Assembly (NCBI RefSeq): GCF_003581425.1
Contig: NZ_QXTG01000003.1
Coordinates: 248,293-312,292, forward strand
Length of the DNA stretch: 64,000 nucleotides
Source: Amnibacterium setariae
GTDB taxonomy: Bacteria > Actinomycetota > Actinomycetes > Actinomycetales > Microbacteriaceae
Direction of reading: 5' to 3'
The notes below the pieces were generated by a model. The model ran no database searches, had not been told where the DNA came from, and worked only from the letters and a program-made list of their open reading frames with translations. The translations under genes and the position numbers were made by a program. How positions within the stretch are numbered: the first letter of the stretch is position 1; the number at the start of each line of letters is the position of its first letter. Below are positions 28,589-52,238 of this stretch, piece by piece.

Positions 28589-29041
28589 TCAGCCGTTGAC
28601 GCGCTCGGGCTCCCCGTTCAACGCGGCGAGCGCTCGGCGGAGCACCGTCGACGACGTCGACATCGTGTAGGGGAAGTAGACGACCTCGACGCCGACGGCG
28701 GCGAACTCGCGCTCGAGCCGGCGGCCCTTCTCGGTCCCGCGCCAGTCGTCGCCCTTGAAGAAGTGGGTGAAGCGGACCTCGCGCCAGGTGTCGAGCTTGT
28801 CCGGCACCACTTCGGCGTGCACGCGGTCGACGTAGGAGATGTGGCTGACGATCTCCATGCGCTCGGCGAGCGGGATGACGGGCGTGATGCCCTTCGTCAG
28901 CCGCAGCATCTCGTCTGACACGACGCCGGCGATCAGCAGGTCGCACTCGCTCTTCGCGTGGCGCAGCAGGTTGAGGTGGCCGATGTGGAAGAGGTCGAAC
29001 GCACCGGCGGCGTAGCCGATGCGAAGGTCCGCAGTGCTCAT
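28589..29041 (-). CDS. TagD-like cytidylyltransferase (copy 1)
   Basis: A 150-residue nucleotidyltransferase. GAFDLFHIGHLNLLRHAK holds the HxGH motif that binds CTP; FKGDDWRGTEKG matches the GDDW block of glycerol-3-phosphate cytidylyltransferase TagD; MSTSSTVLRRAL matches the C-terminal ISTT-like motif. It should make a CDP-alcohol, most likely CDP-glycerol or a related polyol, in the cytoplasm. It is 94% identical (141 of 150 residues) to the copy at 46008-46460. Its ATG overlaps the stop of the GT4 gene by four bases. It is last in a minus-strand operon. The substrate could be another polyol phosphate. Confidence 0.82.
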   Translation of the reverse strand: MSTADLRIGYAAGAFDLFHIGHLNLLRHAKSECDLLIAGVVSDEMLRLTKGITPVIPLAERMEIVSHISYVDRVHAEVVPDKLDTWREVRFTHFFKGDDWRGTEKGRRLEREFAAVGVEVVYFPYTMSTSSTVLRRALAALNGEPERVNG

Positions 29042-30255
29042 GCGTCCTCTTGGATTAGAACGACGTGGGCGGGCCCCGGTGCGGGTACCGCATCGGTCGG
29101 GGCGGAGACGCGGTCGATCTCGTCGACGACCGCGCGCCGGTACCGCGTGGTCGCGTACCGCTCGGCGGCGATCGGCGCCATGGCCGCCGCCGTGCGCGCG
29201 AAGGCGGGCCAGGACACCGCGATCCGGCGCAGGGCGTCCGCGAGGGCGCGGTCGTCGTCCGGACGGACCGCGACCGCGGAGGCGAAGCCGTCAATGGCCT
29301 CGCCGAGCCCGCCGATGCCGCTCACCACCACCGGGCGACCGGCCAGCACCGCCTCGACGGCGATGTTGCCGAAGGGCTCGTCGAGCCGGGAGGGGACCAC
29401 GACGACGTCCGCCGCTGCGATCGAGTCCCACACCGCGGGTTGGAACCCGTGGAAGACGACGCGGTCCTCGAGGCCGAGCTCGGCGACCTGGGCGCGGAGC
29501 CGCCGCTCGTACCACTCGTACCCCGGAAACACGGCGCCGACGATCTCGAGCGACGCGGGCACGCCCGTCGCGACCAGGTCGTGGAGCGCCGCGACCGCGA
29601 CGTCGACGCCTTTCCGCGGTGAGATTCGTCCTACGTAGACGACCCGCAGTCCGCCGTCGAGCTCGCGGCGCGGAGGGACGACCTCGGGCGGCCCGGCGAC
29701 GCCGTTGTAGACGACGGTGGAGCGCGACGCGAGCCGCGGCAGCACCTCGATCAGCCCGTCTCGGCTGAAGGCACTGTTGATGACGAGCCGGTCGGCGAGC
29801 GCGAGCGGCAGCGCGAGGGCGATCCGCAGGACATGCGGCGCCTGGCGTTCGCTCTCGTGCACGTGCACGACCACCGGGATCCGGCGGCGTCGCGCGACGG
29901 CGGTCCAGAGCGGCACCGTGAGCGTCGAGGCGTAGAGCACCTCCGGCCTGATGCGGCGCAGAGCGCGGTCGATGCGCACTGCGGCGACGACGGACCCGAG
30001 GAGGAAGCGGGGGAGGTGCAAGGGGTGCAGGGCGCGCTTGCGCACGGCCGGCGCGTTCAGCACGAGGACCCGTGCGCCGAGCCGGTGCGCCGCGGGGACG
30101 AGCGGGCCGTCTCCGGGCACGGCGAGCACGACCTCCCGCCCTGCTTCGACGAGGCCGGCCAGGGTCTCCAGCATGACGCGGTCCGAGCCGTACAGCTCCG
30201 CGCCGGGATGCGCGATGAGGACCGTGCCCGAGCCCTGCCGCGGCAGGTCACGCAC
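29038..30255 (-). CDS. Family 4 glycosyltransferase
   Basis: A 405-residue GT-B enzyme. TVLIAHPGAELYGSDRVMLE is the acceptor-side loop, VVHVHESERQAPHVLRIALA follows, then LRVVYVGRISPRKGVDVAVA and PSRLDEPFGNIAVEAVLAGR in the donor domain. GTG 30255 overlaps the upstream gene by eight bases, and the stop overlaps the TagD-like gene by four, so three minus-strand genes are tightly coupled. Donor unknown. Confidence 0.87.
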   Translation of the reverse strand: MRDLPRQGSGTVLIAHPGAELYGSDRVMLETLAGLVEAGREVVLAVPGDGPLVPAAHRLGARVLVLNAPAVRKRALHPLHLPRFLLGSVVAAVRIDRALRRIRPEVLYASTLTVPLWTAVARRRRIPVVVHVHESERQAPHVLRIALALPLALADRLVINSAFSRDGLIEVLPRLASRSTVVYNGVAGPPEVVPPRRELDGGLRVVYVGRISPRKGVDVAVAALHDLVATGVPASLEIVGAVFPGYEWYERRLRAQVAELGLEDRVVFHGFQPAVWDSIAAADVVVVPSRLDEPFGNIAVEAVLAGRPVVVSGIGGLGEAIDGFASAVAVRPDDDRALADALRRIAVSWPAFARTAAAMAPIAAERYATTRYRRAVVDEIDRVSAPTDAVPAPGPAHVVLIQEDA

Positions 30256-31684: not shown

Positions 31685-32980
31685 TCAGCCCGCACTCAGG
31701 GTTCTGGGGCGCTCCTCGACGAGGACGTCGGCCCGGTGGCGGGGGAGCGGCAGGGCGACGGACAGCGCTACGAGCAGCGCCCAGTTCCCCTCGATCAGCA
31801 GCCGGCTCTCCGCGATCGCCTGCGTGAGCAGGGCGGCGAGCAGCAGCAGCGGCAGCACGGCGAGCGGGCGCGCGGTGAGCGCGAGGCGCAGGGCCCGGTA
31901 GACGGCGGATCCGATCACGGCGACCAGTGCGAAGAGCCCGGGGATCCCGAGCTGCATCTGGACGTCGAGGTAGGCGTTGTGCGCCTGCAGGTACTGCACG
32001 CCGTCCCGCACGACGAGGCCGTTGAACGGGTGCACCCAGGGCGCCCAGTAGCTGATCCAGCCCCAGCCGAGGATCGGCTCGTCCTTGACGAGGCCGCCGA
32101 CGAGGCGCCAGATCTCGAGGCGTCCGGTGAAGTCGTCGCCCTTGCCGAGCAGCCGGAGGAAGGGCTCCGAGATCCGGGAGGAGCCGACGCCGACCAGGGC
32201 GACGAACAGCACCGAGGCACCGAGCAGCGCCGCCCGACCCCCTGGCCCGAACCGTCGGAGGCCGGCGATCACGAGCGCGGCGACCACGACGACGCCCCCC
32301 GCGATGATCACCGTCGCGGACCGGCTCAGCACGAGCACGAGGGCGTCGAGCAGGAGGGCGGGCACGAGCAGGCGCACGGCGAGCAGGCGCGCCTGCGCCA
32401 GCGACGCGGTGACGACCGCGGCCAGCAGCGCCTGGAAGCAGAGGAGGTTCGCGTTCGCGGTGAAGCCCTGGATCCGGCCGCCCTGGAAGATGAGGCCGTT
32501 GCTCCAGTAGTAGGCGCCTGGGACGTTCGCGCTGTAGTTCGTCCAGAGCGGCAGGATCTGGCCGCCGGGGGAGAGGGCCACCCCGATCTCGAACAGGACC
32601 GAGATCCCGAGGGTCGCCTGCAGCACGATCGCGAACAGCACGGCCAGCCGGACCGGCGGACGCGCCAGGCAGATCGCGACGCCGACGGTGGCGGTCGCGA
32701 TCTGGATCAGGCAGCCGACGATCGTGAGGGCCGGGTAGTCGGACCACGACGTGGACACGAGGCAGAGCGCGATGAAGGCGGCGATCGGGACCGCCCGCCA
32801 GGAGACCAGCAGCGTCCTGGCCCGGCGCCGCTCCTGCCGCAGCAGCACGACCGCGCCGGCGAGGAGCAGCAGGGAGACGGCGCCGAAGCCCCACCAGCTG
32901 AGGAGGTCGCGCATCCCGTCGCCGTTCCAGAGCGAGAAGAGCGCGACCAGCACGTAGCCGTCCCGCACCCGCCGCCGCAC
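31685..32980 (-). CDS. O-antigen ligase / polymerase family membrane protein, set B1
   Basis: A 431-residue protein with about ten to twelve membrane segments. The family signature is near the C-terminal third: FTGRLEIWRLVGGLVKDEPI then LGWGWISYW, and YLQAHNAYLDVQMQLGIPGL with the conserved His-Asn. It would polymerise or ligate lipid-linked glycan outside the membrane. It starts at the edge of a 117-base divergent gap shared with manA. It could be the first gene of the minus-strand unit continuing to 28589, although ~200 bases separate it from the next gene. Confidence 0.83.
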   Translation of the reverse strand: MRRRVRDGYVLVALFSLWNGDGMRDLLSWWGFGAVSLLLLAGAVVLLRQERRRARTLLVSWRAVPIAAFIALCLVSTSWSDYPALTIVGCLIQIATATVGVAICLARPPVRLAVLFAIVLQATLGISVLFEIGVALSPGGQILPLWTNYSANVPGAYYWSNGLIFQGGRIQGFTANANLLCFQALLAAVVTASLAQARLLAVRLLVPALLLDALVLVLSRSATVIIAGGVVVVAALVIAGLRRFGPGGRAALLGASVLFVALVGVGSSRISEPFLRLLGKGDDFTGRLEIWRLVGGLVKDEPILGWGWISYWAPWVHPFNGLVVRDGVQYLQAHNAYLDVQMQLGIPGLFALVAVIGSAVYRALRLALTARPLAVLPLLLLAALLTQAIAESRLLIEGNWALLVALSVALPLPRHRADVLVEERPRTLSAG

Positions 32981-34517: not shown

Positions 34518-35306
34518 ATGCTCACCGAGCCCGCGGTGGACGTGCGGCGACCCGTCGCACCCGTCCCCGAGACCTATCGCCAGACCGTCGCCCGGCTGCA
34601 GGCCGCGCAGAAGCCGGTCGGCCGCGGCGCGCCTGCGTACTCCGTGCACGTCAACCGCCGGCTCGGCCGGTTCATCGCCGCGGCCGCGTTCCGCTTCGGA
34701 CTGACGCCGAACCAGGTCACCGCGCTGAGCGCGGCGCTCACCTTCGCCGCGATCCTGCTCCTCGCCCTCGTCCCGCCGACCTTCTGGCTCGGGCTCGCGG
34801 TCACCGTGCTGCTCGCCGCCGGCTACGCATTCGACAGCGCGGACGGGCAGGTCGCGCGGCTCCGCGGCGGCGGCTCCGCCGCAGGCGAATGGCTCGACCA
34901 CGTGATCGACGCGGTGAAGACCTCGGCGCTGCACGGGGCGGTGCTCCTGCTCGCCTACCGGTTCCTGGTGCCGGCCGACCAGCGCGCCTGGCTGCTCGTC
35001 CCGATCGGCTTCATGATCGTCGCGGCCGTGTCGTTCGCGGTGTTCCTCCTCAACGACCTCCTCCGCGCGGCCCGCGCCCGCACGACGACCGCGACGGCGA
35101 TCCGGACCGGCAGCACGCCCCTCCGCTCGCTGCTCGGGCTGCCGACGGACTACGGCCTGCTGATCTACGTCTTCCTCCTGCTCGGCGCCCCCGGCGCCTT
35201 CGTCATCGCCTACACGCTCCTCCTCGCGGCCCACACGGGCTACCTGGTCCTGGCCCTGCCGAAGTGGTTCCGGGACATGAAGGCGATCGAGCCGGCGGCC
35301 TCCTGA
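34518..35306 (+). CDS. CDP-alcohol phosphotransferase family membrane protein (copy 1)
   Basis: A 262-residue integral membrane enzyme. The full family motif D-x2-DG-x2-AR-x8-G-x3-D-x3-D is present as DSADGQVAR followed by GEWLDHVID. About five to six membrane segments surround it, preceded by a ~60-residue soluble part ending in FGLTPNQVTALSA. The family transfers a phosphoalcohol from a CDP-alcohol (or accepts an alcohol onto CDP-diacylglycerol). No phospholipid-synthesis neighbours exist; a TagD-like enzyme does, so I infer transfer of a polyol phosphate to a glycan or lipid-linked acceptor. A divergent paralogue lies at 51465-52238. ATG 34518 is preferred to TTG 34506. Confidence 0.85.
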   Translation: MLTEPAVDVRRPVAPVPETYRQTVARLQAAQKPVGRGAPAYSVHVNRRLGRFIAAAAFRFGLTPNQVTALSAALTFAAILLLALVPPTFWLGLAVTVLLAAGYAFDSADGQVARLRGGGSAAGEWLDHVIDAVKTSALHGAVLLLAYRFLVPADQRAWLLVPIGFMIVAAVSFAVFLLNDLLRAARARTTTATAIRTGSTPLRSLLGLPTDYGLLIYVFLLLGAPGAFVIAYTLLLAAHTGYLVLALPKWFRDMKAIEPAAS

Positions 35307-36188: not shown

Positions 36189-37571
36189 GTGAACCTCCGA
36201 GACCACCTCCACGTGCTGCGTCGAGGCCTTCCGCTCGTCATCGCCCTCCCGGTCCTGACGACCGTCGCGGCCGGCGTCGTGAGCGCCGCGCAGGCGCCCG
36301 TCTACCAGGCGACGACGAGCCTCACCGTGTCCGCCGCGACGGCGACGAGCGGGACGGACCTGAACCAGGGCGGCACCTACGTCCAGCAGATCGTCAAGAC
36401 CCTCTCCGACGTGGTCACGAAGCCGATCGTGCTCGACCGCGTGCGCCAGTCGCTCGACCTGCCGCAGTCGGAGTCGCAGCTCGCCGCCTCGATCGTCGCG
36501 ACCGCACCGCTGAACACGACGATCATCGAGATCACGGCCGCGGACTCCTCGCCGCAGCGCGCGGCCGCGATCGCGCAGGAGGCGAGCGACCAGCTCGTCG
36601 ACCTGTCGGCGACGCTCGTCCCCTCCGACGCGGCCGGCAAGGCGACCGTCAAGGTCATCCCGATCCAGCGCGCCGTCGTGCCCTCGTCCCCGGTCAGCCC
36701 GACCGTGTCGAGGAACCTCGCCCTCGCGCTCGTCGCCGGCCTGGCGCTCGGGCTGGGGCTCGCGTACCTGTGGTCCGCCATCGACACGCGGATCCGGTCG
36801 GCGCGCGACGTCGGGGCGATCACCGGCACACCGGTGGTCGGCGAGATCCTCGCGGACCCCAGGGCCGCCGCCCACCCCCTGGTCGTCCAGACGTCGCCGG
36901 GCAGCATCCAGGCCGAGGCGTTCCGCGGCCTCCGGACGAACCTGCAGTTCATCGACTTCGAGAGCGGCACGCAGAGCTTCGTGGTGACCTCGTCGCACCC
37001 CGGCGAGGGGAAGACCACGACCACGGCCAACCTGGCGCTCGCCGCGGCGGACGCCGGTCTCGAGGTCGTCCTGGTCGACGGCGACCTGCGGAAGCCGCGC
37101 GTGCACGCCCTCTTCGGCATCGAAGGCGGCCTCGGCCTCGTCGACGCGGTCATCGGTCGCGCGCCCCTCGACGACGTCCTCCAGCCGTGGAGCGACCGCC
37201 TGCACGTGCTGCCCGCCGGGATGATCCCGCCGAACCCCGCCGAGCTGCTGCAGTCGCGCGCGATGAGCGCGCTGCTCGACGAGCTCCGGGAGCGCTACGA
37301 CCTCGTCGTCATCGACAGCCCGCCCCTGCTGCCCGTCTCGGACGCCGCGGTGCTCGCCCGCCGCACCGGCGGGGCGATCGTCGTCGCCGCCGCCAGGCGG
37401 ACGCGGCGGCAGCACCTCGAGCGCGCGCTGCAGGCCCTCGACCAGGCGGGAGCCGGTGTGCTCGGCGTCGTCGTGACCATGCTCCCCACGAAGGGTCCGG
37501 ATTCCGCGAGCAGGAGCGTGTACGGGTACGGCGAGACGCCGGGCTCGTCCGCGGTGCTCGGCAAGGCATGA
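36189..37571 (+). CDS. Wzc-type polysaccharide co-polymerase and tyrosine kinase
   Basis: A 460-residue membrane protein. Residues 1-205 are the Wzz-like chain-length domain with two membrane segments (LPLVIALPVLTTVAAGVVSA and NLALALVAGLALGLGLAYLW). The cytoplasmic BY-kinase domain has Walker A SHPGEGKTTTTANLALAAAD, Walker A' VVLVDGDLRKPR and Walker B YDLVVIDSPP. The C-terminus ends SVYGYGE, with two tyrosines that could be autophosphorylated. It controls polymer length and export. GTG 36189 is chosen, since AAGAAAGG precedes it; the frame is open earlier. It overlaps the polymerase gene by four bases. The phosphatase at 45344 is the probable counter-enzyme. Confidence 0.92.
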   Translation: MNLRDHLHVLRRGLPLVIALPVLTTVAAGVVSAAQAPVYQATTSLTVSAATATSGTDLNQGGTYVQQIVKTLSDVVTKPIVLDRVRQSLDLPQSESQLAASIVATAPLNTTIIEITAADSSPQRAAAIAQEASDQLVDLSATLVPSDAAGKATVKVIPIQRAVVPSSPVSPTVSRNLALALVAGLALGLGLAYLWSAIDTRIRSARDVGAITGTPVVGEILADPRAAAHPLVVQTSPGSIQAEAFRGLRTNLQFIDFESGTQSFVVTSSHPGEGKTTTTANLALAAADAGLEVVLVDGDLRKPRVHALFGIEGGLGLVDAVIGRAPLDDVLQPWSDRLHVLPAGMIPPNPAELLQSRAMSALLDELRERYDLVVIDSPPLLPVSDAAVLARRTGGAIVVAAARRTRRQHLERALQALDQAGAGVLGVVVTMLPTKGPDSASRSVYGYGETPGSSAVLGKA

Positions 37572-38872
37572 CCGCCCCGGCGATCGTCGCGCCGGTCGCC
37601 GGCCGGGCGGAGCCCCGCGTCCTCGTCGCGCTCCAGGACGCGGCGCTCGCCGCGTTCGTCATCGCGTGCTTCTGCCCCTTCCTGATCGAGCGCGTGACGT
37701 CGCCCGCGATCTTCGCCGCCCTCGTGCTGTGGGTGTTCGTGCTCGTCGAGCTCGCGCGTCGCAGGGCCGCGCAGGCGGCGCTCGGCGTCTGGATCGGGTT
37801 GCCCGTCGTCCTGCTCGTCGTCGCCTACGCCCTCAACACGCTGCCCGAGGTGCAGCGCGCGGCGCTCGGCGCGCTGCCCGGGGCCTTCGGGCAGTTCGGT
37901 GTCGAGCTGCCCGTGGCCGCCGTGGCCGGCGCCCTCCTCGTGCGGAGCGGGCGGGCCCGCTGGGCGGCGACCTCCGTCCGCGCCACGGCGGTGCTGTGTG
38001 CGCTCGGGGCGGTCCTCGAGCGCCGCACCGGCCGGCAGCTCTTCCTCGGCAACGTCGTCAACACCAACTTCGGGTACACGCAGCAGGTCCAGGGCGCGGC
38101 CCTGACCGACAGCGGCGCGCTCCGCGGCATCGTCGCCGCGGATCACCCGCTGGTGCTCGCGCTGCTGCTCGCGACGACCGTCGCGATCGTGCTCGTCGGC
38201 CCGCTCCGCCCGGTGAAGCTGATCGAGGTCGGTCTGCTCCTCGCCGGCATCTGGGCCACCGACAGCAGCGGTCCGCTCGCCGTCGCGGTGCTCGCCGTGG
38301 CGGTCCGGCTCGTCGTCGCGCTCGCGGACCGCGCGGCGATCCCGGTCGTGCCGTCCAGGCGGCTGGTGCGGATCGTGGCAGTGGTGGCCGTCTCGGCGTT
38401 CCTGCTCGCGGCGACCTTCCTCTGGCATCCGGTGATCGACCCGTCCGTGCTCGACCAGAGCACGCTGTACCGCTTCGCGCTCTTCTCCTTCATCCCGGTC
38501 GCGATCGCCGCCCGCCCGCTCGGCTTCGGTCTGATCGGGCCGCCACGGGGCACATTCGTCGTCGAGAGTCCGGGGCACCCGCTCGACATCGCGGCGACGG
38601 TGGACTCGGAGCTCGTGCTGATGGTCCTGCGCTTCGGCCTGGTGGGCCTGCTCGTGTTCCTCGCGATCGCTTGGATCGGGATCCGCGGCGTCCTCGACCG
38701 GCGGGCGCTCCGCCGAGGCGGCGGTGCGCTCGCGGTGATGACGGCCTGCGGAGCGATCGTCGCGATCGAGGTCTGGCCGACGGTCTCCGCGGCCTGGGTG
38801 CTGCTGATGGGCTTCACCCTCGCGCTGCTCGTGGAGAGCCGGCGCGCGCGGGATCGCGAGCCGAGGCCGTGA
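37568..38872 (+). CDS. O-antigen ligase / polymerase-like membrane protein, set B2
   Basis: A 434-residue protein with about ten to twelve membrane segments. The family motif region is modified: LYRFALFSFIPVAIAARPLG then FGLIGPPRGTF and IAATVDSELVLMVLRFGLVG, where the usual His of the ligase motif is not evident. Gene order (wzc, this gene, flippase) supports a Wzy-type polymerase. ATG 37568 overlaps the wzc stop (ATGA), and its own stop overlaps the flippase start (GTGA). Confidence 0.75.
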   Translation: MTAPAIVAPVAGRAEPRVLVALQDAALAAFVIACFCPFLIERVTSPAIFAALVLWVFVLVELARRRAAQAALGVWIGLPVVLLVVAYALNTLPEVQRAALGALPGAFGQFGVELPVAAVAGALLVRSGRARWAATSVRATAVLCALGAVLERRTGRQLFLGNVVNTNFGYTQQVQGAALTDSGALRGIVAADHPLVLALLLATTVAIVLVGPLRPVKLIEVGLLLAGIWATDSSGPLAVAVLAVAVRLVVALADRAAIPVVPSRRLVRIVAVVAVSAFLLAATFLWHPVIDPSVLDQSTLYRFALFSFIPVAIAARPLGFGLIGPPRGTFVVESPGHPLDIAATVDSELVLMVLRFGLVGLLVFLAIAWIGIRGVLDRRALRRGGGALAVMTACGAIVAIEVWPTVSAAWVLLMGFTLALLVESRRARDREPRP

Positions 38873-40362
38873 CCGACCGGCTCGCAGGGCGCGCATCGCG
38901 AGGCGCCGCCGTCACCCTCGGCGCGCAGGGGCTCCGCGTCCTCGTCCAGACGGCAAGCGTCGTCGTGCTCGCACGGCTGCTCGCGCCGACCGACTACGGC
39001 CTCATCGCCGAGGTCCTCGTCGTCATCGGTCTGGGCGAGATCTTCCGGGACTTCGGGCTGACCAGTGCGGCGGTCCAGGCGAAGACCCTGAGCGCGGGGG
39101 AGCGCAGCAACCTGTTCTGGCTCAACGCCGTCATCGGCGTCGTGCTGGCGGCGGTCACCGTGCTCGCGGCGCCCGGCGTCGCCGCGTTCTACGGGGACGA
39201 CCGCCTCGTCGCGCTGACCGCGGTGCTCTCCGTGGTGTTCCTCTTCAACGGGGTCGGGACCCAGCTCAGGGCCGATCTGAACCGCCGGCTCGCGTTCGGT
39301 CGGCTGTCCGCGGCCGAGATCGTCGGCCAGGCGGCCGGCCTCGCCGGCGGCGTGGCGATCGCGCTGCTCGGAGGCGGGTACTGGGCGCTCGCCGGTCAGC
39401 AGATCCTGCAGGCCGTCGTCACCCTCGTCCTGCTGTGGTGGTTCGACCGCTTCCGGCCCGAGCGCTACCGCCGCGACGTGCCGATGCGGCGATTCCTCGG
39501 GTTCGGCGCGGACGTCGTGGGCGCGCAGCTGCTCGGCTACGCCGGGAAGAACACGGACACCGTGGTGATCGGCGCGACGCTCGGAGTCGGCCCGCTCGGC
39601 GTCTACAACCGTGCGTTCCAGCTGCTCGCGCTGCCGCTGACCCAGATCAACGCACCCGCGACCCGGGTCGCGCTCCCGGTGCTGTCGAGCCTGCAGGACC
39701 AGCCCGAGCGCTTCCGGCGGTACCTGCTCGCGGGGCAGTCGGTCATGCTGCACCTGGTGCTCGCGGTCTTCTCGTGGTCGACCGCGCTCGCGACGCCGCT
39801 GCTGCTGCTCCTGCTCGGTCCGCGCTGGTCCGACTCCGTGCCCCTCTTCCAGATCCTCGCGGTCTCCGGCGTCTTCACGACCGCGGGCTACAGCACCTAC
39901 TGGGTGTTCATGGCCAAGGGGCTCACCCGGTCCTTCCTCTTCTGGCAGATCGTCACGAGGCCCGTGGTGATCGGTGTCGTGCTGCTCGGCGCGCTCGGCG
40001 GGCTCACCGGCGTCGCCATCGCCTACTCGTCCGTGTCGGTCCTGACGTGGGTGCTCGGACTCGTCTGGATCGCGCGCGTCTCAGACGCTCCGGCACGCGC
40101 GATGCTCGTCGGCGGGATCCTCGCGACGACCGGCTACCTGATCCCGGCGGCTGCGGCGTGGGCGGTCGGGACTGCGATCGGCCCCGGCATCCTCGGTCTC
40201 GTCGGCGGCACGGTCGCGTGGGTCGCCGCCCTGGCCGCCGTCCTGGCCGTCTGGCCGGCCTTCCGCAGGGACGCGCTCGTGGTCCTCCGGGTCGGCGCCG
40301 CGATGCGCGGCGCCCGCGGCCGGTCCGAGCGGGCCCCCGTGCAGCAGGCGGTCCCGCGATGA
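38869..40362 (+). CDS. Lipopolysaccharide/EPS flippase (WzxC-like), set B
   Basis: A 497-residue protein with about fourteen membrane segments, starting with an amphipathic helix (RASRGAAVTLGAQGLRVLVQ). ARLLAPTDYGLIAEVLVVIG, DFGLTSAAVQAKTLSAGERS and LGYAGKNTDTVVIGATLGVG are typical blocks of the WzxC/polysaccharide-export branch of the MOP superfamily. It moves lipid-linked repeats to the outer face. GTG 38869 overlaps the polymerase stop and its stop overlaps the next ATG (ATGA), so four genes from wzc on are translationally coupled. Confidence 0.88.
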   Translation: MTDRLAGRASRGAAVTLGAQGLRVLVQTASVVVLARLLAPTDYGLIAEVLVVIGLGEIFRDFGLTSAAVQAKTLSAGERSNLFWLNAVIGVVLAAVTVLAAPGVAAFYGDDRLVALTAVLSVVFLFNGVGTQLRADLNRRLAFGRLSAAEIVGQAAGLAGGVAIALLGGGYWALAGQQILQAVVTLVLLWWFDRFRPERYRRDVPMRRFLGFGADVVGAQLLGYAGKNTDTVVIGATLGVGPLGVYNRAFQLLALPLTQINAPATRVALPVLSSLQDQPERFRRYLLAGQSVMLHLVLAVFSWSTALATPLLLLLLGPRWSDSVPLFQILAVSGVFTTAGYSTYWVFMAKGLTRSFLFWQIVTRPVVIGVVLLGALGGLTGVAIAYSSVSVLTWVLGLVWIARVSDAPARAMLVGGILATTGYLIPAAAAWAVGTAIGPGILGLVGGTVAWVAALAAVLAVWPAFRRDALVVLRVGAAMRGARGRSERAPVQQAVPR

Positions 40363-46007: not shown

Positions 46008-46460
46008 TCAGCCGTTGATGCGTTCGGGTTCGCCGTTCAGCGCGGCGAGCGCCCGGCGCAGCACGGTCGACGACGTCGACATCGTGTACGGGAAGTAGAC
46101 GACCTCGACGCCGACGGCGGCGAACTCGCGCTCGAGCCGGAGGCCCTTCTCGGTGCCGCGCCAGTCGTCGCCTTTGAAGAAGTGGGTGAATCCGACCTCT
46201 CGCCAGGTGTCGAGCTTGTCCGGGACGACCTCGGCATGGACGCGGTCGACGTAGGAGATGTGGCTGACGATCTCCATCCGCTCCGCGAGCGGGATGACGG
46301 GCGTGATGCCCTTCGTCAGCTGCAGCATCTCGTCGGAGACGACGCCGGCGATCAGCAGGTCGCACTCGCTCTTCGCGTGGCGGAGCAGGTTGAGGTGCCC
46401 GATGTGGAACAGGTCGAACGCACCGGCCGCGTAGCCGATGCGGACAAGGGACTCGTTCAT
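46008..46460 (-). CDS. TagD-like cytidylyltransferase (copy 2)
   Basis: A 150-residue enzyme with the same motifs as copy 1: HIGH in GAFDLFHIGHLNLLRHAK, GDDW in FKGDDWRGTEKG, and MSTSSTVLRRAL. Nine residues differ from copy 1, five of them in the first seven positions. Base changes between the copies are mostly at third codon positions. It should make CDP-glycerol or another CDP-polyol. It is the last gene of the large minus-strand operon, which also encodes a CDP-alcohol phosphotransferase; a 103-base gap separates it from the Alg13-like gene. Confidence 0.82.
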   Translation of the reverse strand: MNESLVRIGYAAGAFDLFHIGHLNLLRHAKSECDLLIAGVVSDEMLQLTKGITPVIPLAERMEIVSHISYVDRVHAEVVPDKLDTWREVGFTHFFKGDDWRGTEKGLRLEREFAAVGVEVVYFPYTMSTSSTVLRRALAALNGEPERING

Positions 46461-46563: not shown

Positions 46564-47247
46564 TCACGCGAGGGAGGAGTGCTTCTCGGAGATCGATGAC
46601 GGGCCCGTGGCCGGCGAGACCTCCACGAGCGCCGGAAGCTCGACGGCACTCGATGTCGTGAGGGACCGTCCAGTCCGACGTCGCTGGCCGCTGGACCGGC
46701 TGAGAGGACGCAGCCGCGACCAGCGGATGAATCCCGCCGGCCGACTCATGACGTCGTCGACGACCGCTGCGAGCGCCAGTGCCGTCTCCGCGGCAGCCGA
46801 GGAGCGGGGCTCGCGACGGAAGTGCTGCGGGTCCTCGAGGGCTGCGGTGGCCGCGGCACGGAACGCGACCTCGTCCTCCGCGAGCACGGCCTCGCCGCGT
46901 CCGGCGATGAACCGTCCGAAGCGGATCTGGTGCTCGTCCACGTGCTCGCCCAGGTCCGGGCGCCGTGGCACGACGATGGGGATCCGCCCGACCGAGGCGA
47001 CGTCGAGAATGGTGCCCGGGCCGACCTGGGTGATCACGACGTCCGCGTCCCGGTACCGGTTCAGCATCTCCTCCCTCGACACCATGACGACATGCGTCCC
47101 GAATCGCGGGGGGCGTGAAGTGCCGCGCTGCACGAACAGGTCCACATCGGAGCCCATCGACACGGCCCAGTCTTCGACCCAGCTCACCAGCCGGTCGAAG
47201 CGGTGATGGTCCGTTCCCAGGGAGACGACGACGGAGACGGCGCTCAC
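46564..47247 (-). CDS. Alg13/PssE-like glycosyltransferase catalytic subunit
   Basis: A 227-residue protein. SVVVSLGTDHHRFDRLVSWV at the start and DADVVITQVGPGTILDVASV followed by RIPIVVPRRPDLGEHVDEHQ are the donor-binding half of the MurG-like GT-B fold (Alg13). It needs the Alg14-like partner encoded just upstream, whose stop it overlaps (GTGA, start GTG 47247). Together such pairs add the second sugar to a lipid-linked repeat. The C-terminal ~60 residues (IRWSRLRPLSRSSGQRRRTG) are basic and polar and not part of the family. Confidence 0.85.
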   Translation of the reverse strand: MSAVSVVVSLGTDHHRFDRLVSWVEDWAVSMGSDVDLFVQRGTSRPPRFGTHVVMVSREEMLNRYRDADVVITQVGPGTILDVASVGRIPIVVPRRPDLGEHVDEHQIRFGRFIAGRGEAVLAEDEVAFRAAATAALEDPQHFRREPRSSAAAETALALAAVVDDVMSRPAGFIRWSRLRPLSRSSGQRRRTGRSLTTSSAVELPALVEVSPATGPSSISEKHSSLA

Positions 47248-47693
47248 AGCGCGGGTCCGATCACGATCGACTCCGGGTAGACCGTCTCCCGCTGAGGCCA
47301 CTGCTCGCACATCGCGTCCGAGAAGGGGTAGGAGAGCCGCCCGTTCAAGGTCGGGCTGTCGATCCGGTCGAAGACCTCGATGTACACCGTGCGGATTCGG
47401 AGGAAGCGGGCGACCACGAAGAACGGCAGGCTCACTCCTGCCCCCGTGGTCACGACGACGTCCGGTCGAAGCCTACGAAGCGTGCGGACGGCCAGACCGA
47501 GATTGCGGACCGCGTTGCGCGCGTTCCGCGTGACGGGGTGGTGCGCCCAGACGACTCGTTCATCGGCCAGGGCCGAGACCGCGTCCTCCTTGTCGAACGT
47601 CACCCAGGTGCGTTCGTGCTGCTGCCACCACGCGCGCAGCGACAGCAGCTGCGCGAGGTGGCCTCCGGTTGAAGCGATGAGAAGAAGGTTCAT
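47244..47693 (-). CDS. Alg14/PssD-like glycosyltransferase membrane subunit
   Basis: A 149-residue protein. NLLLIASTGGHLAQLLSLRA has the GGH motif of Alg14; RPDVVVTTGAGVSLPFFVVA and YIEVFDRIDSPTLNGRL are the other family blocks. It recruits the Alg13-like subunit to the membrane and binds the lipid acceptor. Three bases separate it from the flippase gene before it, and it overlaps the Alg13-like gene after it. Confidence 0.88.
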   Translation of the reverse strand: MNLLLIASTGGHLAQLLSLRAWWQQHERTWVTFDKEDAVSALADERVVWAHHPVTRNARNAVRNLGLAVRTLRRLRPDVVVTTGAGVSLPFFVVARFLRIRTVYIEVFDRIDSPTLNGRLSYPFSDAMCEQWPQRETVYPESIVIGPAL

Positions 47694-47696: not shown

Positions 47697-49274
47697 TCAC
47701 CTTTCGAGGGCGACCGCGCCGTCGGGTACGGCGGGGGAGGGGGTTGGGGTTGGGGAGGGAGCTGGTAGAGGGTCGCTGGAACCGCCCCGAAGGGCGAGCG
47801 CTCCGAGACCGAGGGGGCCGCGAAGCAGGAGAACGGTGATCGCATAGATCACGAGGAGCACGATCGACGCGATGAGGAAGGTCGCGAGGGTGCGTCCGAA
47901 GAGTGCCGCCGCGACGGAGCCGCCGCCTGCGATGACGACGACGGCGAGAGCGGCCGGCAGCGCGATGAGGCGGGCCGAGCTGCGGATACGCATCTTGACG
48001 GCGACCTGCGTGGCCGCGAGCACCGTGTCGACGGCGATGGAGGCCGCTTGGCCGATCGCGGCCCCCAGGAGTCCGAGCCGGGGCACCAGGAGCGCGGTCA
48101 CGACCAGGAGCACCGTGAGCTGGACGACGCGGTTGCCGAGCTGCCACGAGCTCCGGCCGCCCATGAGGAGGATGCTCTGCACCATGCCGGCGGTCGTTGC
48201 GAGCATCATCGCGAGGGCGATGATGGCGAGCGGCAGGGCGCCGGCCGCGAACGCGGGGCCGAAGATCGACAGGATCGCAGGGGCGAACACGGCGAGCAGC
48301 AGGTAGAACGGCCAGGCGACCAGCACCAGCGCCCGGGTCACCTCGAGGAAGAGTCGAGCGGCCTCGTCGCTGTCACCGACTGCGAGCGCGCGGCTGATCC
48401 GCGGGCCGACGACGATCCGAGCGGCCTGATCGATCATGGTCCCGGCGTTGACGCAGCGGTTCACGATGGCGTAGATGCCGCCGACGACCGGGCCGCCGAC
48501 GGCGAGCACCACGAGCATCCCCGACCAGTCGAGCGCTCGCTCGATGAGCGTCGAAGCGCCTCGGGGAAGCGCGAAGCCCCAGAACAGACGTGCGGTGCCG
48601 CTGTGGCTTCCAGACGGCGTGCTGGAGGACGGGGCGGAGACGGAACGCAGCTGACCGGCGAGGACGAGTGCGGCGATCGCCACGAGCGGTGCGAGGACAG
48701 CCGCCCAGCCCGCGGCGATCCACTGCACCCCCGCGCCGGCGATCGTGCCGATCGCCACCACGGCGAGCCGCGAGAGGGGTAGCGCGAGGTTCTGCAACGC
48801 GGTGTAGGGCAGCGTGGATCCGATGCCGCGGGTTCCTCCGAGTACGACGGTCAGCAGCGCTCCGGCGCCGAGGAACGGCGACATGACGCGCACGAGCTCT
48901 GTCGCGTAGTCGGGATCGGAGGGGGTGATCCATGCGCCGATCGGAGCGGCGCAGCTGAAGACCGCGAGCGATACGAGGAGGCTGACGCCGATCACCGGCA
49001 GCAGGGCCGACCGGACGGTGCTGCGCAGTCGGTCCTGCTCGTGGAGCGCGATGTGCCGGGAGAGGGTCCGCACGAGTGCGGTGTCCGCGCCGAGCTGAAG
49101 CCCGTTCGACACGATCGCGAAGAGTGCGACCGCTTGGAAGAAGAGACCGGTGCCTGCCGGTCCGAGCCCGCGGCCGACGACCTGCGCGAGCGCGAGGGTC
49201 GCCAGCGCACCGATGGCGATGCCGGCGAAGGTGACCGTACCCGAGCGGAGCGCACCGCCTCGTCTCGCGTTCAC
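47697..49274 (-). CDS. Polysaccharide flippase (MOP superfamily), set C
   Basis: A 525-residue protein with about fourteen membrane segments. The N-terminal block SGTVTFAGIAIGALATLALA and GRGLGPAGTGLFFQAVALFA are typical of actinobacterial lipid-linked oligosaccharide flippases. The last ~35 residues are a Pro/Thr/Ser tail (LPAPSPTPTPSPAVPDG). GTG 49274 overlaps the polymerase stop (GTGA). It would export the unit made by the neighbouring glycosyltransferases. Confidence 0.85.
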   Translation of the reverse strand: MNARRGGALRSGTVTFAGIAIGALATLALAQVVGRGLGPAGTGLFFQAVALFAIVSNGLQLGADTALVRTLSRHIALHEQDRLRSTVRSALLPVIGVSLLVSLAVFSCAAPIGAWITPSDPDYATELVRVMSPFLGAGALLTVVLGGTRGIGSTLPYTALQNLALPLSRLAVVAIGTIAGAGVQWIAAGWAAVLAPLVAIAALVLAGQLRSVSAPSSSTPSGSHSGTARLFWGFALPRGASTLIERALDWSGMLVVLAVGGPVVGGIYAIVNRCVNAGTMIDQAARIVVGPRISRALAVGDSDEAARLFLEVTRALVLVAWPFYLLLAVFAPAILSIFGPAFAAGALPLAIIALAMMLATTAGMVQSILLMGGRSSWQLGNRVVQLTVLLVVTALLVPRLGLLGAAIGQAASIAVDTVLAATQVAVKMRIRSSARLIALPAALAVVVIAGGGSVAAALFGRTLATFLIASIVLLVIYAITVLLLRGPLGLGALALRGGSSDPLPAPSPTPTPSPAVPDGAVALER

Positions 49275-50551
49275 CGCAGCTCCTCGCCGTCACTGCGGGC
49301 TCGCAGGAGGACCGCCGCGACCAGCACGAGCACGAGCAGCTGCACCGTTCCGAGCCCGTAGAACCACATCAGCGGGATGGCCATGACGATGACGGCGTGG
49401 AGCAGCAGCGCCGGCGTCGTCGGGGCCGCGGCCGTCCGCAGTGCGACGCCCAGGAGGAACAGCACGAAGAGCGCGAGCCCCACGAAGCCGTACGAGTACA
49501 TGAGCGTCCAGGCGTGGCCCTGGGTGCCGAGCGCGTACCCGATCGTGGCGTCGTCCTGCGGGCTCGCCCATCCGAGGAAGGGCGAATCGAGAGTGGCGCG
49601 GAAGGTCGCCGAGTAGAGGTCCGATCGGGTTCCGGTGCTGTCGCTGACCTCCTGCCTCTCGAGGATGTTTTGAACGGCCCCGCTGAGCACGAGGTAGGCG
49701 CCCGCGACGGCGGCCGCGAGCGAGGCGCCGACGACGGCTGCGATGCGCCCGCGGAGCGCGAGACGCAGTACCACGTACACGACCGCGATGCCGAGGCCGA
49801 GGAACATCCCGCGGTTGCTCGTCTGCACGGCCGGGTAGACCGAGACGACGAGCAGGGCGCTCAGCACCAGGCGGACCCGACGACTCGGGCCGGTGGTGAG
49901 GAACGCCACGACCACCGGCGTCAGCAGGGCGTAGGCCGCACCCCAGCTGTTGGCGTAGGGGAAGGGAGCAGCGGGACGGTTGAACGGCTGCTCCGCGCCC
50001 CACGGCTGCTGCACTTCCGCGAGGGGCGGCAGCAGCAGCTGGTGGACGAGGTCGTTCTGCAGCAGACCGTTCGGGACGATCAACGAGACGGGTGTCGTCA
50101 GGCGCGCGTCGGGGAGCGCGATCGCGACGAGTCCGAGCAGGACGACGGACGACCAGAGGACCACGACCGCGTTCATGACGAGGCGTGCATCGATGCGCTC
50201 ACGCGCATTCACGTAGTAGACGGCGGCGGTGGCGGCTGAGGCCAAGTCGCCTAGGCGCTGAACGTATCCCACTCCCTGCGAGAGGGAGTGGAGTCCGATC
50301 CCGCAGATGACGACCCAGGGCAGGAGGACCAGCAGGGGCAGGAGCCCGGGCACGAGCCGCGCGCGACCGCGGACGAGCAGCAGGGCGATCATGACCGCCG
50401 CGAAGCCGATGGACGCGAAGGCGGTCGCTCCCAGCGCCCACTCCAGCGGGTACGTTACCACCATGGCAGTCAGCGGCCAAGCGGGCAGGGCCCTGACTCG
50501 CTGATGAAGCCGGACACCCGGGGTGCCTGCTGGAAGGGTCGAGATGGTCAC
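49271..50551 (-). CDS. O-antigen ligase / polymerase family membrane protein, set C
   Basis: A 426-residue protein with about ten to twelve membrane segments. Family signature: RSDLYSATFRATLDSPFLGW followed by a variant loop with ALGTQGHAWTLMYSYGFVGL, holding the conserved His. GTG 50551 is chosen because it overlaps the preceding stop by four bases; the frame is open further upstream into the GT2 gene. It is coupled to the flippase. Polymerisation of the repeat at the outer face is the likely job. Confidence 0.82.
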   Translation of the reverse strand: MTISTLPAGTPGVRLHQRVRALPAWPLTAMVVTYPLEWALGATAFASIGFAAVMIALLLVRGRARLVPGLLPLLVLLPWVVICGIGLHSLSQGVGYVQRLGDLASAATAAVYYVNARERIDARLVMNAVVVLWSSVVLLGLVAIALPDARLTTPVSLIVPNGLLQNDLVHQLLLPPLAEVQQPWGAEQPFNRPAAPFPYANSWGAAYALLTPVVVAFLTTGPSRRVRLVLSALLVVSVYPAVQTSNRGMFLGLGIAVVYVVLRLALRGRIAAVVGASLAAAVAGAYLVLSGAVQNILERQEVSDSTGTRSDLYSATFRATLDSPFLGWASPQDDATIGYALGTQGHAWTLMYSYGFVGLALFVLFLLGVALRTAAAPTTPALLLHAVIVMAIPLMWFYGLGTVQLLVLVLVAAVLLRARSDGEELR

Positions 50552-51468
50552 AGTCCGCGTCCGCTCCGGTTCACCAGGTCCACGAGGAGGCCGGCGGGCG
50601 CGAGCCGCAGGGAGATGACCAGCGCCGCATAAGCGCGGAGCTGGCGGTGATCGTTGCGCAGCGCCTGAACCGCCCACGATCGGGCGTCGGCACGCCTGCC
50701 GAGCGCCGCGTGCGCGAACGCCACCTGTCCCTCGATGCGGGCGGCTCCACGAGGAGCGGCGGCGAACTCGGGGAACTTCCGAAGCAGGTAGGTGAGGCCG
50801 GCGGCGATGCCCTCCCAGCGGCCGTTGAAGAACGACGTGCGCTTCCAGTTGACGACCACGAGGGGCTCGACGACGCATGCGACGTGCCCCACCCGGGTCG
50901 CGCGGAGCAGCAGGTCGTAGTCCTCGCCGTACGAAGAAGGAAGCACTTCGTCGACCAGACCGATCGGACCGGTCAGGTCCGCGCGCCGCAGCAGGAACGA
51001 GGACGGGTGGATCTCCGTCAGGCGCGAGTCGAGGAAGTCGGCGAACGTGGCGCGCGGCGGCGGAAGACGGACGTGCGACCCGCCCGCCGATTCGATGCGG
51101 ATGCCCGTCGCCACGACTGCCGCCGTCGGGTCCTCACGCCAGGCCTCGACCTGCGCGGAGAGCTTGCCGTTCAGCCACTCGTCATCGTCGTCGCAGAACG
51201 CGATCAGTTCCGCGGTCGCGGCCAGGATGCCCGTGTTCCGGCCGCCTGCGAGCCCGGCTGTCCGAGTGTTGACCGACGTGCGCAGGGAGCGGTTCTCGGG
51301 CACGTCGACGTCGGTGAGGGGGTCGACCTCGACGCCGTCGAAAACCACGTGCACGTGGACATCGCCCTGGTAGTCCTGCGCGAGGATCGATCTGACCGCA
51401 GCGCGCAGGAGCTGAGGACGCCCCCTCGTGGCGACGACGACGCCGATGGTGGGAAGAGCGGTGTTCAT
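50548..51468 (-). CDS. Family 2 glycosyltransferase
   Basis: A 306-residue GT-A enzyme: TIGVVVATRGRPQLLRAAVR, VHVVFDGVEV, GLAGGRNTGILAATAELIAF and CDDDDEWLNGKLSAQVEAW supply the nucleotide and metal sites, and PSSYGEDYDLLLRATRVGH the catalytic ED. The C-terminal ~70 residues are helical. ATG 51468 overlaps the CDP-alcohol phosphotransferase stop (ATGA), and its own stop overlaps the polymerase start. Confidence 0.87.
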   Translation of the reverse strand: MNTALPTIGVVVATRGRPQLLRAAVRSILAQDYQGDVHVHVVFDGVEVDPLTDVDVPENRSLRTSVNTRTAGLAGGRNTGILAATAELIAFCDDDDEWLNGKLSAQVEAWREDPTAAVVATGIRIESAGGSHVRLPPPRATFADFLDSRLTEIHPSSFLLRRADLTGPIGLVDEVLPSSYGEDYDLLLRATRVGHVACVVEPLVVVNWKRTSFFNGRWEGIAAGLTYLLRKFPEFAAAPRGAARIEGQVAFAHAALGRRADARSWAVQALRNDHRQLRAYAALVISLRLAPAGLLVDLVNRSGRGL

Positions 51469-52238
51469 GCTGCGTTCCCCAGCCGTTCGAGGTGCTGATG
51501 CTTCCGGCGCATAGAGATGAGCGCGTGCCCCGCATTGAGGACCAGCAGTGCGGTGTAGACGACGGCGAAGGCGAGCGGAGCGCCCCAGAGGAGGAAGAGC
51601 CAGCAGAGCAGTCCGGTGTCGGTCGGAAGGTTGACTACCGACTGGAGCACCCCGCCGCGTCCGGCGGGAGCGCGGTGGACTCGCCCGCTCAGCTGCTCCG
51701 CGAGCACCTGGCTCATGAACTGGCCGGCAGCCACGATGCAGAACAGCAGCGCGGCGGCCTGCGCCCACGTCTGCTCCGGGAGCCAATGGTTCAGGCCGAC
51801 GAGCACTGCGAGATGGATCGCCGGCATGCGCATCGCATCAACGACGTGATCGAGCCATTCGCCCGCGCGGCTGCCGCTTCCTGTGAGCCGCGCCAGCTGG
51901 CCGTCGGCCGAGTCGAGGACGTATCCGAGCGCGAGGAGGATCGCCACCGAGACGCCGAGGACGGCACTCGGCGGAAGGGTGATCAGGAGCGCGATGCCGG
52001 CCGCGGACGACGCCGCGCTCGCGGCGGTCACCGCGTTCGGTGTCAGGCCGACTCGGAACGCAGCGGCCGCAGGCACGCGTGCGAGTCGCCGATTCACCCA
52101 GCGCGTGTACGCCGGGAACCCCGCCCCGGGCTTCTGCACCTCGGCGAGCTCTTGGAGCGCGCCACGGAAGGTCCGGCGTTCCCCGGGTCCGGGTCCGGGT
52201 CCGGGCTTGCGCTCGACCGCCAGATCTGCGCTCGTCAT
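51465..52238 (-). CDS. CDP-alcohol phosphotransferase family membrane protein (copy 2)
   Basis: A 257-residue membrane enzyme with the complete family motif DSADGQLAR followed by GEWLDHVVD. Layout and many residues match the protein at 34518-35306 (AEVQKPGAGFPAYTRWVNRR, FRVGLTPNAVT, NLPTDTGLL), but it is clearly more diverged from it than the two TagD-like copies are from each other. The N-terminus has a Gly-Pro run (KPGPGPGPGERR) encoded by a hexamer repeat. Both ends overlap neighbours by four bases (ATGA), including the big secreted protein upstream. I infer a polyol-phosphate transfer using the CDP-polyol made by the TagD-like enzyme of the same operon. Confidence 0.85.
   Translation of the reverse strand: MTSADLAVERKPGPGPGPGERRTFRGALQELAEVQKPGAGFPAYTRWVNRRLARVPAAAAFRVGLTPNAVTAASAASSAAGIALLITLPPSAVLGVSVAILLALGYVLDSADGQLARLTGSGSRAGEWLDHVVDAMRMPAIHLAVLVGLNHWLPEQTWAQAAALLFCIVAAGQFMSQVLAEQLSGRVHRAPAGRGGVLQSVVNLPTDTGLLCWLFLLWGAPLAFAVVYTALLVLNAGHALISMRRKHQHLERLGNAA
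52185..52202 (-). repeat. Hexamer tandem repeat (GGGTCC)3 in the CDP-alcohol phosphotransferase gene
   Basis: Three perfect GGGTCC units (plus-strand reading) encode the Gly-Pro run near the N-terminus of the minus-strand gene. Slippage would be in frame. Confidence 0.6.

What the first reader, a model, noticed from the sequence alone, without database searches (positions are those of the whole stretch)
28589..52238. Two TagD-like / CDP-alcohol phosphotransferase pairs inside an EPS locus, with no TagB/TagF: a possible new polyol-phosphate glycan system
Seen: TagD-like enzymes at 28589 and 46008 (HxGH, GDDW and STS motifs) and CDP-alcohol phosphotransferases at 34518 and 51465 (full D-x2-DG-x2-AR motif). 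Known: TagD makes CDP-glycerol, and CDP-alcohol phosphotransferases move a phosphoalcohol from CDP-alcohols; in teichoic acid synthesis CDP-glycerol is instead used by TagB/TagF proteins, which I do not see. Inferred: the membrane phosphotransferase uses the CDP-polyol to decorate or build the exported polysaccharide with polyol phosphate. No phospholipid gene is nearby. This is the best candidate for an undescribed system here.
Basis: partly seen in the sequence, partly recalled or inferred. Interest (0 to 1): 0.72.

Follow-up and report, generated by a model that had tools for sequence, protein, structure and literature searches.

The report
CDP-alcohol phosphotransferase module in actinobacterial exopolysaccharide loci
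Many actinobacteria seem to attach a phosphate-linked small alcohol (probably glycerol) to their exported sugar coat with a membrane enzyme built like the one that makes phosphatidylcholine in animals, in place of the teichoic-acid-type enzymes that other bacteria use.

Summary
In detail: two TagD-like cytidylyltransferases (94% identical) and two CDP-alcohol phosphotransferases (CDPA, 48% identical) in a large exopolysaccharide region; one set forms a tight operon with Wzx, Wzy and glycosyltransferases. The CDPAs are not phospholipid synthases; the genome's third PF01066 gene is PgsA. TagD and CDPA behave as one module: both in 45 of 150 family genomes, TagD alone in 2, CDPA alone in 1. Of 80 loci picked by CDPA, 79 could be checked and 76 of these genomes carry TagD, against 9 of 396 in the phylum. 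TagD does not track strong TagB/TagF hits. All 115 CDPAs examined carry the Glu-x3-His pair of eukaryotic choline phosphotransferases. On plasmids of other phyla, related TagD-like genes mostly sit beside a TagF-like or LicD transferase, so CDPA appears to fill that slot in actinobacteria. Best reading: CDP-glycerol is made and the CDPA moves glycerol-phosphate onto a lipid-linked glycan before export. Pairing and context are shown; alcohol, acceptor and product are inferred. New variant of a known kind; no paper among those listed by ten searches describes it.

The parts
28589..29041 (-). TagD-like cytidylyltransferase, copy A; last gene of a minus-strand operon (Wzy, GT4, GT4, TagD)
   Evidence: PF01467 55.3 bits; AlphaFold2 model pLDDT 90.0; Foldseek best hits Fom1 CyTase and glycerol-3-phosphate cytidylyltransferases
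46008..46460 (-). TagD-like cytidylyltransferase, copy B; last gene of the locus-B operon
   Evidence: PF01467 56.4 bits; 94% identical to copy A
34518..35306 (+). CDP-alcohol phosphotransferase A (CDPA), E124-x3-H128 type
   Evidence: PF01066 33.3 bits; model pLDDT 90.6; Foldseek hits M. tuberculosis PIP synthase, AF2299, IPCT-DIPPS
51465..52238 (-). CDP-alcohol phosphotransferase B (CDPA), same motif; 4-base overlaps with both operon neighbours
   Evidence: PF01066 42.5 bits; spacing computed
29038..30255 (-). GT4 glycosyltransferase
   Evidence: PF00534/PF13692
30248..31564 (-). GT4 glycosyltransferase with DUF1972; a member of its family is the gene just before CDPA, same strand, for 48 of 115 CDPA genes
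   Evidence: PF09314; neighbour counts
31685..32968 (-). Wzy/O-antigen-ligase-like polymerase, locus A
   Evidence: PF04932
35368..36045 (+). small protein with one N-terminal hydrophobic segment and a Pro/Thr-rich linker (read by eye); its family directly follows CDPA, same strand, for 27 of 115
   Evidence: no Pfam family; sequences
36189..37571 (+). Wzz chain-length regulator with BY-kinase-like domain
   Evidence: PF02706 and ParA/AAA_31
37568..38872 (+). possible polymerase (weak PF04932, below cut-off)
   Evidence: 23.4 bits against 31.7
38869..40362 (+). Wzx flippase, locus A
   Evidence: PF13440 243 bits
46564..47247 (-). PssE-like glycosyltransferase subunit
   Evidence: NCBIfam NF041548 54.1 bits, below cut-off 120
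47244..47693 (-). PssD-like glycosyltransferase subunit
   Evidence: NCBIfam NF041549 105.3 bits against cut-off 110
47697..49274 (-). probable Wzx flippase, locus B
   Evidence: weak SpoVB-type hit, 32.9 bits against 372.3; not scanned against Pfam
49271..50464 (-). Wzy/O-antigen-ligase-like polymerase, locus B
   Evidence: PF04932 33.6 bits against 31.7
50548..51468 (-). GT2 glycosyltransferase, locus B
   Evidence: PF00535
52235..55618 (-). large, probably secreted protein at the head of the locus-B operon
   Evidence: DUF5122 and galactose-binding-type hits, mostly near their cut-offs; 4-base overlap with CDPA
15756..17225 (+). priming phosphoglycosyl transferase of the region (Bac_transf); a member of its family lies two genes before CDPA, same strand, for 34 of 115
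   Evidence: PF02397 223 bits

Best explanation
The TagD-like protein and the CDPA are two steps of one dedicated pathway. (1) The soluble TagD-like enzyme joins CTP to a small phosphoalcohol, most likely glycerol-3-phosphate, giving CDP-glycerol and pyrophosphate [inferred]. (2) The membrane CDPA binds the CDP group and two metal ions through its four aspartates [from the motif]; its Glu124/His128 pair activates a hydroxyl of an undecaprenyl-linked oligosaccharide built by the priming transferase and the GT4/GT2 enzymes, and the phosphoalcohol is transferred with release of CMP [inferred by analogy with eukaryotic cholinephosphotransferase]. (3) Wzx flips and Wzy polymerises the decorated unit [inferred from gene content]. 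The CDPA so replaces the TagB/F- or LicD-type transferases that partner related TagD-like enzymes elsewhere. The two window copies would share one donor (TagDs 94% identical) but serve two acceptors (CDPAs 48% identical) [inferred].
For: Co-occurrence: 45 both, 2 TagD only, 1 CDPA only, 102 neither in 150 family genomes, Fisher p 1e-34; phylum sample of 396: 8 both, 1 TagD only, 1 weak CDPA only. Of 80 loci found by CDPA alone, 35 have TagD within 10 kb, 12 of them within 250 bp; of the other 45 genomes 44 were held and 41 have it elsewhere. Polysaccharide context: 66 of 70 full-length named loci carry at least two of six polysaccharide gene classes (the profiles were made from these and sister loci). 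Locus B is one tight operon. Glu/His pair: 115 of 115 CDPAs called, of which 38 of 38 were found without any motif pattern; not in the genome's own PgsA. PMC10182977 calls the pair highly conserved in eukaryotic and absent from most bacterial enzymes (passages). Partner swap: of 12 plasmid records with a TagD-like gene at E 1e-20, 9 were opened: TagF-like next door in 4 (three L. plantarum, one Companilactobacillus), LicD next door in 2 (Parabacteroides, Gemmobacter), CDPA 3.6 kb away in 1 (Actinomyces oris), no known transferase in 2 (Arthrobacter; Prevotella, whose neighbours are a GDPD-like protein and GT2). Pfam confirmed five of these transferases. Substrate: no match to inositol-phosphate synthase or choline kinase families, and no EDK motif in the two over-cut-off PEP-mutase-family genes; glycerol-3-phosphate needs no extra gene (general knowledge).
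Against: No biochemistry. The TagD-like proteins miss the curated glycerol-3-phosphate and heptose cut-offs by similar margins and lack the Arg of TagD's RTEGIST, so nucleotide and alcohol are open. The CDPA could use a lipid acceptor, as its eukaryotic look-alikes do; Foldseek ranks PIP synthase, AF2299 and DIPPS above cholinephosphotransferase. TagD against any PF04464 hit, weak ones included, gives 45/2/76/27, p 0.0014, so some link with that superfamily is not excluded. TagD without CDPA occurs in G129 and G142 (no CDPA in the 20-kb stretches around TagD either); CDPA without TagD in G124, G152 (weak hit) and three of 44 handle genomes. Two of nine opened plasmid contexts, and three of five opened at lower similarity, show no known transferase next door. 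Co-occurrence was not corrected for relatedness beyond genus tallies (33 of 85 genera for each gene).
Confidence: 0.6

Rival explanations
1. Kennedy-type lipid synthesis: the CDPA moves the phosphoalcohol from the CDP-alcohol onto diacylglycerol or a glycolipid, giving a phospholipid or phosphoglycolipid, perhaps an anchor for the polysaccharide or a secreted protein.
For: The Glu/His pair is that of enzymes whose acceptor is diacylglycerol (PMC10182977, passages). A Bacteroidetes route of NTP transferase plus CDPA is proposed for inositol lipids (PMC9246714, passages). Large secreted-type proteins lie in the fetched stretch of 81 of 114 CDPA loci.
Against: Patchy distribution, PgsA present elsewhere, frequent company of Wzx/Wzy/Wzz/glycosyltransferases, and swap with TagF-like/LicD genes on plasmids of other phyla.
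Confidence: 0.15
2. Same module, but the alcohol is ethanolamine or choline, i.e. a bacterial phosphoethanolamine/phosphocholine pathway on polysaccharide.
For: Human ethanolamine-phosphate cytidylyltransferase is the top PDB sequence hit (E 2.3e-27 summed over two domains). LicD, known from phosphocholine transfer, is next to TagD-like genes on two plasmids.
Against: Best single-domain score is to glycerol-3-phosphate cytidylyltransferase (66.4 against 57.9 bits). GDDW is shared with TagD and Fom1, not with the ethanolamine enzyme. No choline/ethanolamine kinase family match. A Trp of cholinephosphotransferase 8ul9 aligns with residue 50, which is Gly or Ala in all 109 CDPAs with a letter there; that this Trp is the choline-cage Trp50 of the Xenopus enzyme is my inference from spacing.
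Confidence: 0.1
3. The TagD-like protein makes an ADP-sugar (heptose-type), or CDP-glycerol for another enzyme such as the partial PF04464 protein 12 kb outside the window, and sits near CDPA only because both belong to polysaccharide islands.
For: Heptose adenylyltransferase is the best NCBIfam hit for the window copies (63.8 and 60.6 bits). Weak PF04464 proteins are common in these genomes and go with TagD at p 0.0014.
Against: TagD tracks CDPA, not strong PF04464 hits (23/24/54/49, p 0.73). TagD and CDPA stay in one genome over shuffled gene content and over distances up to 60 kb, once 450 kb. The genome has separate HldE-like genes.
Confidence: 0.1
4. The CDPA starts the polysaccharide by putting the phosphoalcohol on undecaprenyl phosphate, as a primer or linkage unit.
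For: No priming transferase was found in the locus-B operon.
Against: A phosphate acceptor would not need the Glu/His base (reasoning); a priming transferase lies two genes before CDPA for 34 of 115 and in 43 of 80 named loci.
Confidence: 0.05

Closest known systems
TagD plus TagB/TagF (wall teichoic acid; TagF-like capsule polymerases)
   Same: A TagD-type cytidylyltransferase feeds a phosphopolyol transferase; related TagD-like genes sit beside PF04464 transferases in Lactiplantibacillus and Companilactobacillus polysaccharide loci
   Different: Transferase here is an integral-membrane PF01066 enzyme; only two partial PF04464 hits in the genome
LicC/LicD and PntC phosphocholine/phosphonate decoration
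   Same: CDP activation followed by transfer to a surface glycan; PMC6697681 compares LicC to the Kennedy pathway (passages); LicD beside TagD-like genes in Parabacteroides and Gemmobacter
   Different: LicC/PntC are of the MobA-like fold, the transferase is LicD, and no choline kinase match or PEP-mutase EDK motif was found here
Eukaryotic CHPT1/CEPT1 (Kennedy pathway)
   Same: CDP-linked small alcohol as donor (by inference), four Asp plus Glu/His in the signature region
   Different: Acceptor there is diacylglycerol; here inferred to be a glycan; low overall similarity (E 2.3e-7)
IPCT/DIPPS and AF2299 (archaeal cytidylyltransferase-CDPA proteins)
   Same: Cytidylyltransferase-type domain coupled to a CDPA; best or near-best matches in the PDB
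   Different: No Glu/His pair (GGYVDSILDR, GAWLDGVLDR); DIPPS works on inositol with a soluble product (recalled)
Proposed alternative inositol-lipid cluster of Bacteroidetes (PMC9246714)
   Same: NTP transferase plus CDPA, Kennedy-like logic (passages)
   Different: Lipid product, with inositol-phosphate synthase; unconfirmed by its authors. A TagD-like/SDR/CDPA cluster seen here in Parabacteroides lacks Glu/His

Membership tests
Glycerol-3-phosphate cytidylyltransferase (TagD, TIGR01518) | Score above curated equivalog cut-off 165.4 | tested here: not met
   58.5 and 58.7 bits
Glycerol-3-phosphate cytidylyltransferase (TagD, TIGR01518) | Fold and HxGH, GDDW motifs | tested here: met
   Foldseek TMt 0.86-0.89 to 5x3d, 2b7l, 1coz; alignments
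Glycerol-3-phosphate cytidylyltransferase (TagD, TIGR01518) | RTEGIST signature (name recalled; letters seen in the 1coz alignment) | tested here: not met
   PYTMSTSST in its place; the Fom1 CyTase also lacks the Arg there
Glycerol-3-phosphate cytidylyltransferase (TagD, TIGR01518) | Makes CDP-glycerol | not testable with these tools
   needs an assay
CDP-alcohol phosphotransferase superfamily (PF01066) | Score over gathering cut-off and full D1xxD2G1xxAR...G2xxxD3xxxD4 motif | tested here: met
Phospholipid synthases PgsA/PIPS/PssA (NCBIfam equivalogs) | Score above equivalog cut-offs | tested here: not met
   PIPS 48.6 and 45.8 of 170; pgsA 16.9 of 109.1 (51465 only); pssA 20.4 and 19.3 of 107; the genome's real PgsA scores 122.8
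Eukaryotic-type CHPT1/CEPT1 | Glu and His at GExxDHxxD | tested here: met
   115 of 115, 38 of 38 found without a motif pattern; PMC10182977
Eukaryotic-type CHPT1/CEPT1 | Choline-binding cage (Trp50, Phe186, Glu43) | tested here: inconclusive
   a Trp of 8ul9 aligns with Gly/Ala; the other two were not placed
TagB/TagF system | Linked full-length PF04464 transferase | tested here: not met
   only two partial hits in the genome; no correlation with strong PF04464 hits, p 0.73

The most novel reading that the evidence does not exclude
A third class of CDP-alcohol:glycan phosphotransferase, beside TagB/F and LicD: a eukaryote-like (Glu/His) integral-membrane Kennedy-type enzyme recruited by Actinomycetota to decorate lipid-linked exopolysaccharide units with glycerol phosphate (or another phosphoalcohol), partnered by a dedicated TagD-like enzyme and found across several orders of the phylum.
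Probability: 0.55. Interest if true: 0.75.

Novelty: new variant of a known kind. Interest (0 to 1): 0.6.

Why it matters
It would predict that many actinobacterial exopolysaccharides carry an acidic phosphodiester-linked alcohol, extend CDP-alcohol phosphotransferases from lipids to glycans, give an easy genomic marker for such polymers, and explain why the TagD-like enzyme changes its transferase partner between phyla. It also offers bacterial relatives of cholinephosphotransferase chemistry for mechanistic work.

Tried and rejected
Considered and rejected: phosphatidylglycerol or phosphatidylinositol synthase; phosphonate activation (no EDK motif in the two PEP-mutase-family genes over the cut-off; a third hit, E 8.5e-4 and under the cut-off, was not fetched); linked teichoic-acid operon. 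The IspD-SDR fusion left of the window resembles a CDP-ribitol synthase (recalled resemblance to Bcs1/TarIJ; NCBIfam ribitol-5-phosphate cytidylyltransferase 141.7 against 166) and is taken as a separate cluster.

Led nowhere: paper searches for this pair (62 and 73 gave background). Only the listed papers were seen, as listings with the start of the abstract: 20 of 392, 10 of 20, 10 of 109, 12 of 1,179, all in the others. Read as found passages only: PMC10156783, PMC11324152, PMC6697681, PMC9246714, PMC12419801; PMC13390465 was searched and held none of the terms; PMC10182977 passages plus section 8. The VIA-align library was not on the machine.

Counting caveats: gene calls in loci come from a simple codon-usage script. 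The 114 loci and 115 CDPAs come from 121 sources (120 fetched stretches and the window); in 7 (L066, L074, L075, L076, L086, L089, L132) no CDPA was called in that family. The named loci were scanned with patterns from conserved motifs, one of which contains GEWLDH, so the Glu/His count is unbiased only for the 38 others. The 80 named loci are the best 80 of at least 510. TagD was judged by different tests (profile E 1e-10 in the stretch; single protein E 1e-20 in the genome). The family and phylum samples include G000 itself. In one search some TagD-like calls are truncated. In one search distances are for 44 of the 45 genomes with both (G000 left out), two of them on different contigs.

Full report
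What is there. The window (C3:248293-312292 of a 3.48 Mb genome) is a large exopolysaccharide region. Locus A has a minus-strand operon Wzy - GT4(DUF1972) - GT4 - TagD (31685-32968 down to 28589-29041) and, on the plus strand, a mannose-6-phosphate isomerase (manA), CDPA, a small protein, Wzz, a possible polymerase, Wzx and GT2. Locus B is one tight minus-strand operon: secreted-type protein - CDPA - GT2 - Wzy - Wzx - PssD-like - PssE-like - TagD, with four 4-base overlaps and gaps of 83, 3 and 103 bases.

The two TagD-like proteins are 94% identical, and their DNA similarity (93.4% over 438 bases) covers the gene except its first codons and goes no further than 3 bases beyond it, while the two CDPAs are 48% identical. 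This fits one shared donor and two acceptors (inference).

Not phospholipid enzymes. The genome's only other PF01066 gene passes the pgsA cut-off and lies by FtsK-like and CinA/PncC-like genes. No match to inositol-phosphate synthase. The CDPAs score far below the phospholipid-synthase equivalogs listed.

One module. Family sample: 47 of 150 genomes have TagD (E 1e-30), 46 of 150 have CDPA (E 1e-15); 45 have both, 2 TagD only (G129, G142), 1 CDPA only (G124). Distances in 44 of the 45: 42 on one contig, 40 of these within 30 kb, 13 within 5 kb, one 60 kb and one 450 kb apart. Phylum sample: 9 of 396 and 9 of 396, 8 shared, two of which are again family members; in four of the six others the two matches lie 8 to 44 bases apart. 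Other direction: a scan by CDPA profile gave at least 510 relatives; the 80 kept bear actinobacterial titles. 35 of 80 have TagD within 10 kb, and 41 of the 44 remaining genomes held have it elsewhere (one not held): 76 of 79. The three without are two metagenome assemblies and one draft genome (titles).

Not tied to TagB/F. Against strong PF04464 hits (E 1e-20 or better, 77 of 150) TagD gives 23/24/54/49, p 0.73. Against any PF04464 hit (121 of 150) it gives 45/2/76/27, p 0.0014, a result against a clean separation.

Polysaccharide context. In 80 named loci: GT4-like in 69, GT2 in 44, priming transferase in 43, Wzz in 43, Wzy in 24, Wzx in 19; 66 of 70 full-length loci have at least two classes, 69 at least one; of four control stretches of the own genome, one (the heptose locus) has GT4, three have none. 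The profiles were built from these and sister loci, so this is description rather than an independent test. Order: DUF1972-GT4 directly before CDPA for 48 of 115, priming transferase two before for 34 of 115.

Mechanistic clue. All 115 CDPAs called have Glu after the G and His after the third Asp of the motif, 38 of 38 among those found without a motif pattern. In Xenopus CHPT1 these residues (Glu129, His133) are proposed to take part in activating the acceptor hydroxyl and are described as absent from most bacterial enzymes (PMC10182977, passages). The human CEPT1 authors propose His155 or His197 as base (PMC10156783, passage). AF2299, DIPPS, M. tuberculosis PIP synthase and the own PgsA lack the pair (alignments).

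Partner swap. Plasmid records: 12 with a TagD-like gene at E 1e-20, of which I opened 9. Next gene: TagF-like in three L. plantarum and one Companilactobacillus, LicD in Parabacteroides and Gemmobacter. In Actinomyces oris CDPA lies 3.6 kb away, with priming transferase, DUF1972-GT4, GT4 and flippase. Arthrobacter alpinus shows no known transferase; the Prevotella record has no annotation, and the ORFs beside the gene are a GDPD-like protein and GT2. At lower similarity (24 records at E 1e-10) five more were opened: Bacteroides finegoldii has a TagF-like gene two genes away, Parabacteroides a CDPA without Glu/His two genes away, and Pantoea, E. coli and Entomospira no known transferase next door. 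So this enzyme group goes with at least three transferase types; the CDPA with Glu/His is the actinobacterial one in what was examined.

Substrate. Fold matches are to the Fom1 CyTase (CMP-hydroxyethylphosphonate) and glycerol-3-phosphate cytidylyltransferases first, then heptose- and choline-type enzymes. Family searches found no inositol-phosphate synthase and no choline kinase, and the PEP-mutase-family genes lack the EDK motif (motif from PMC6697681). Glycerol-3-phosphate is the parsimonious alcohol; I put it at about 0.6 within the main reading.

Shown: genes, motifs, co-occurrence, context, partner swap. Inferred: nucleotide, alcohol, acceptor, timing before export. Ten searches of the open library listed no paper that, from its listing, describes the pair; four of them listed only a part of their hits, and subscription papers are mostly not held.

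Noticed in passing
28586-29023 and 46005-46442: DNA similarity between the two TagD copies (93.4%) ends at about the gene boundaries, as if only the ORF had been duplicated or converted.
   Followed up: partly
52235-55618, 4037-6097; families in L039-L159: Large secreted-type proteins (DUF5122, LamG, PKD, beta-helix hits in those scanned) lie in the fetched stretch of 81 of 114 CDPA loci, often close to CDPA; possibly matrix or glycan-binding partners.
   Followed up: partly
35368-36045: Small protein without a Pfam family whose relatives directly follow CDPA for 27 of 115; an Arthrobacter plasmid annotation has a DUF4352 protein near its TagD-like stretch.
   Followed up: no
L005:6277-8067 and L005:15082-16494 (about 12 and 3 kb left of the window): Partial PF04464 protein beside UDP-galactopyranose mutase, and an IspD-SDR fusion resembling a CDP-ribitol synthase.
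   Followed up: partly
L009:6728-8188 and L009:15097-16455: Two HldE-like PfkB-cytidylyltransferase fusions in a heptose-type cluster of an actinobacterium.
   Followed up: no
L097 about 9561-11210; L141 about 9573-11136: CDPA flanked on both sides by TagD-like genes, one of them much diverged.
   Followed up: no
L175:3492-6425: Parabacteroides cluster TagD-like, SDR, CDPA without Glu/His, acyltransferase; looks like a lipid variant.
   Followed up: no
26696-28582 and L005:16591-18459: DUF4012 proteins; relatives of the first lie beside TagD in two same-genus genomes, next or next but one.
   Followed up: no
L170:4959-5990: GDPD-like protein directly before a TagD-like gene in Prevotella, a weak hint at glycerophosphate.
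   Followed up: no
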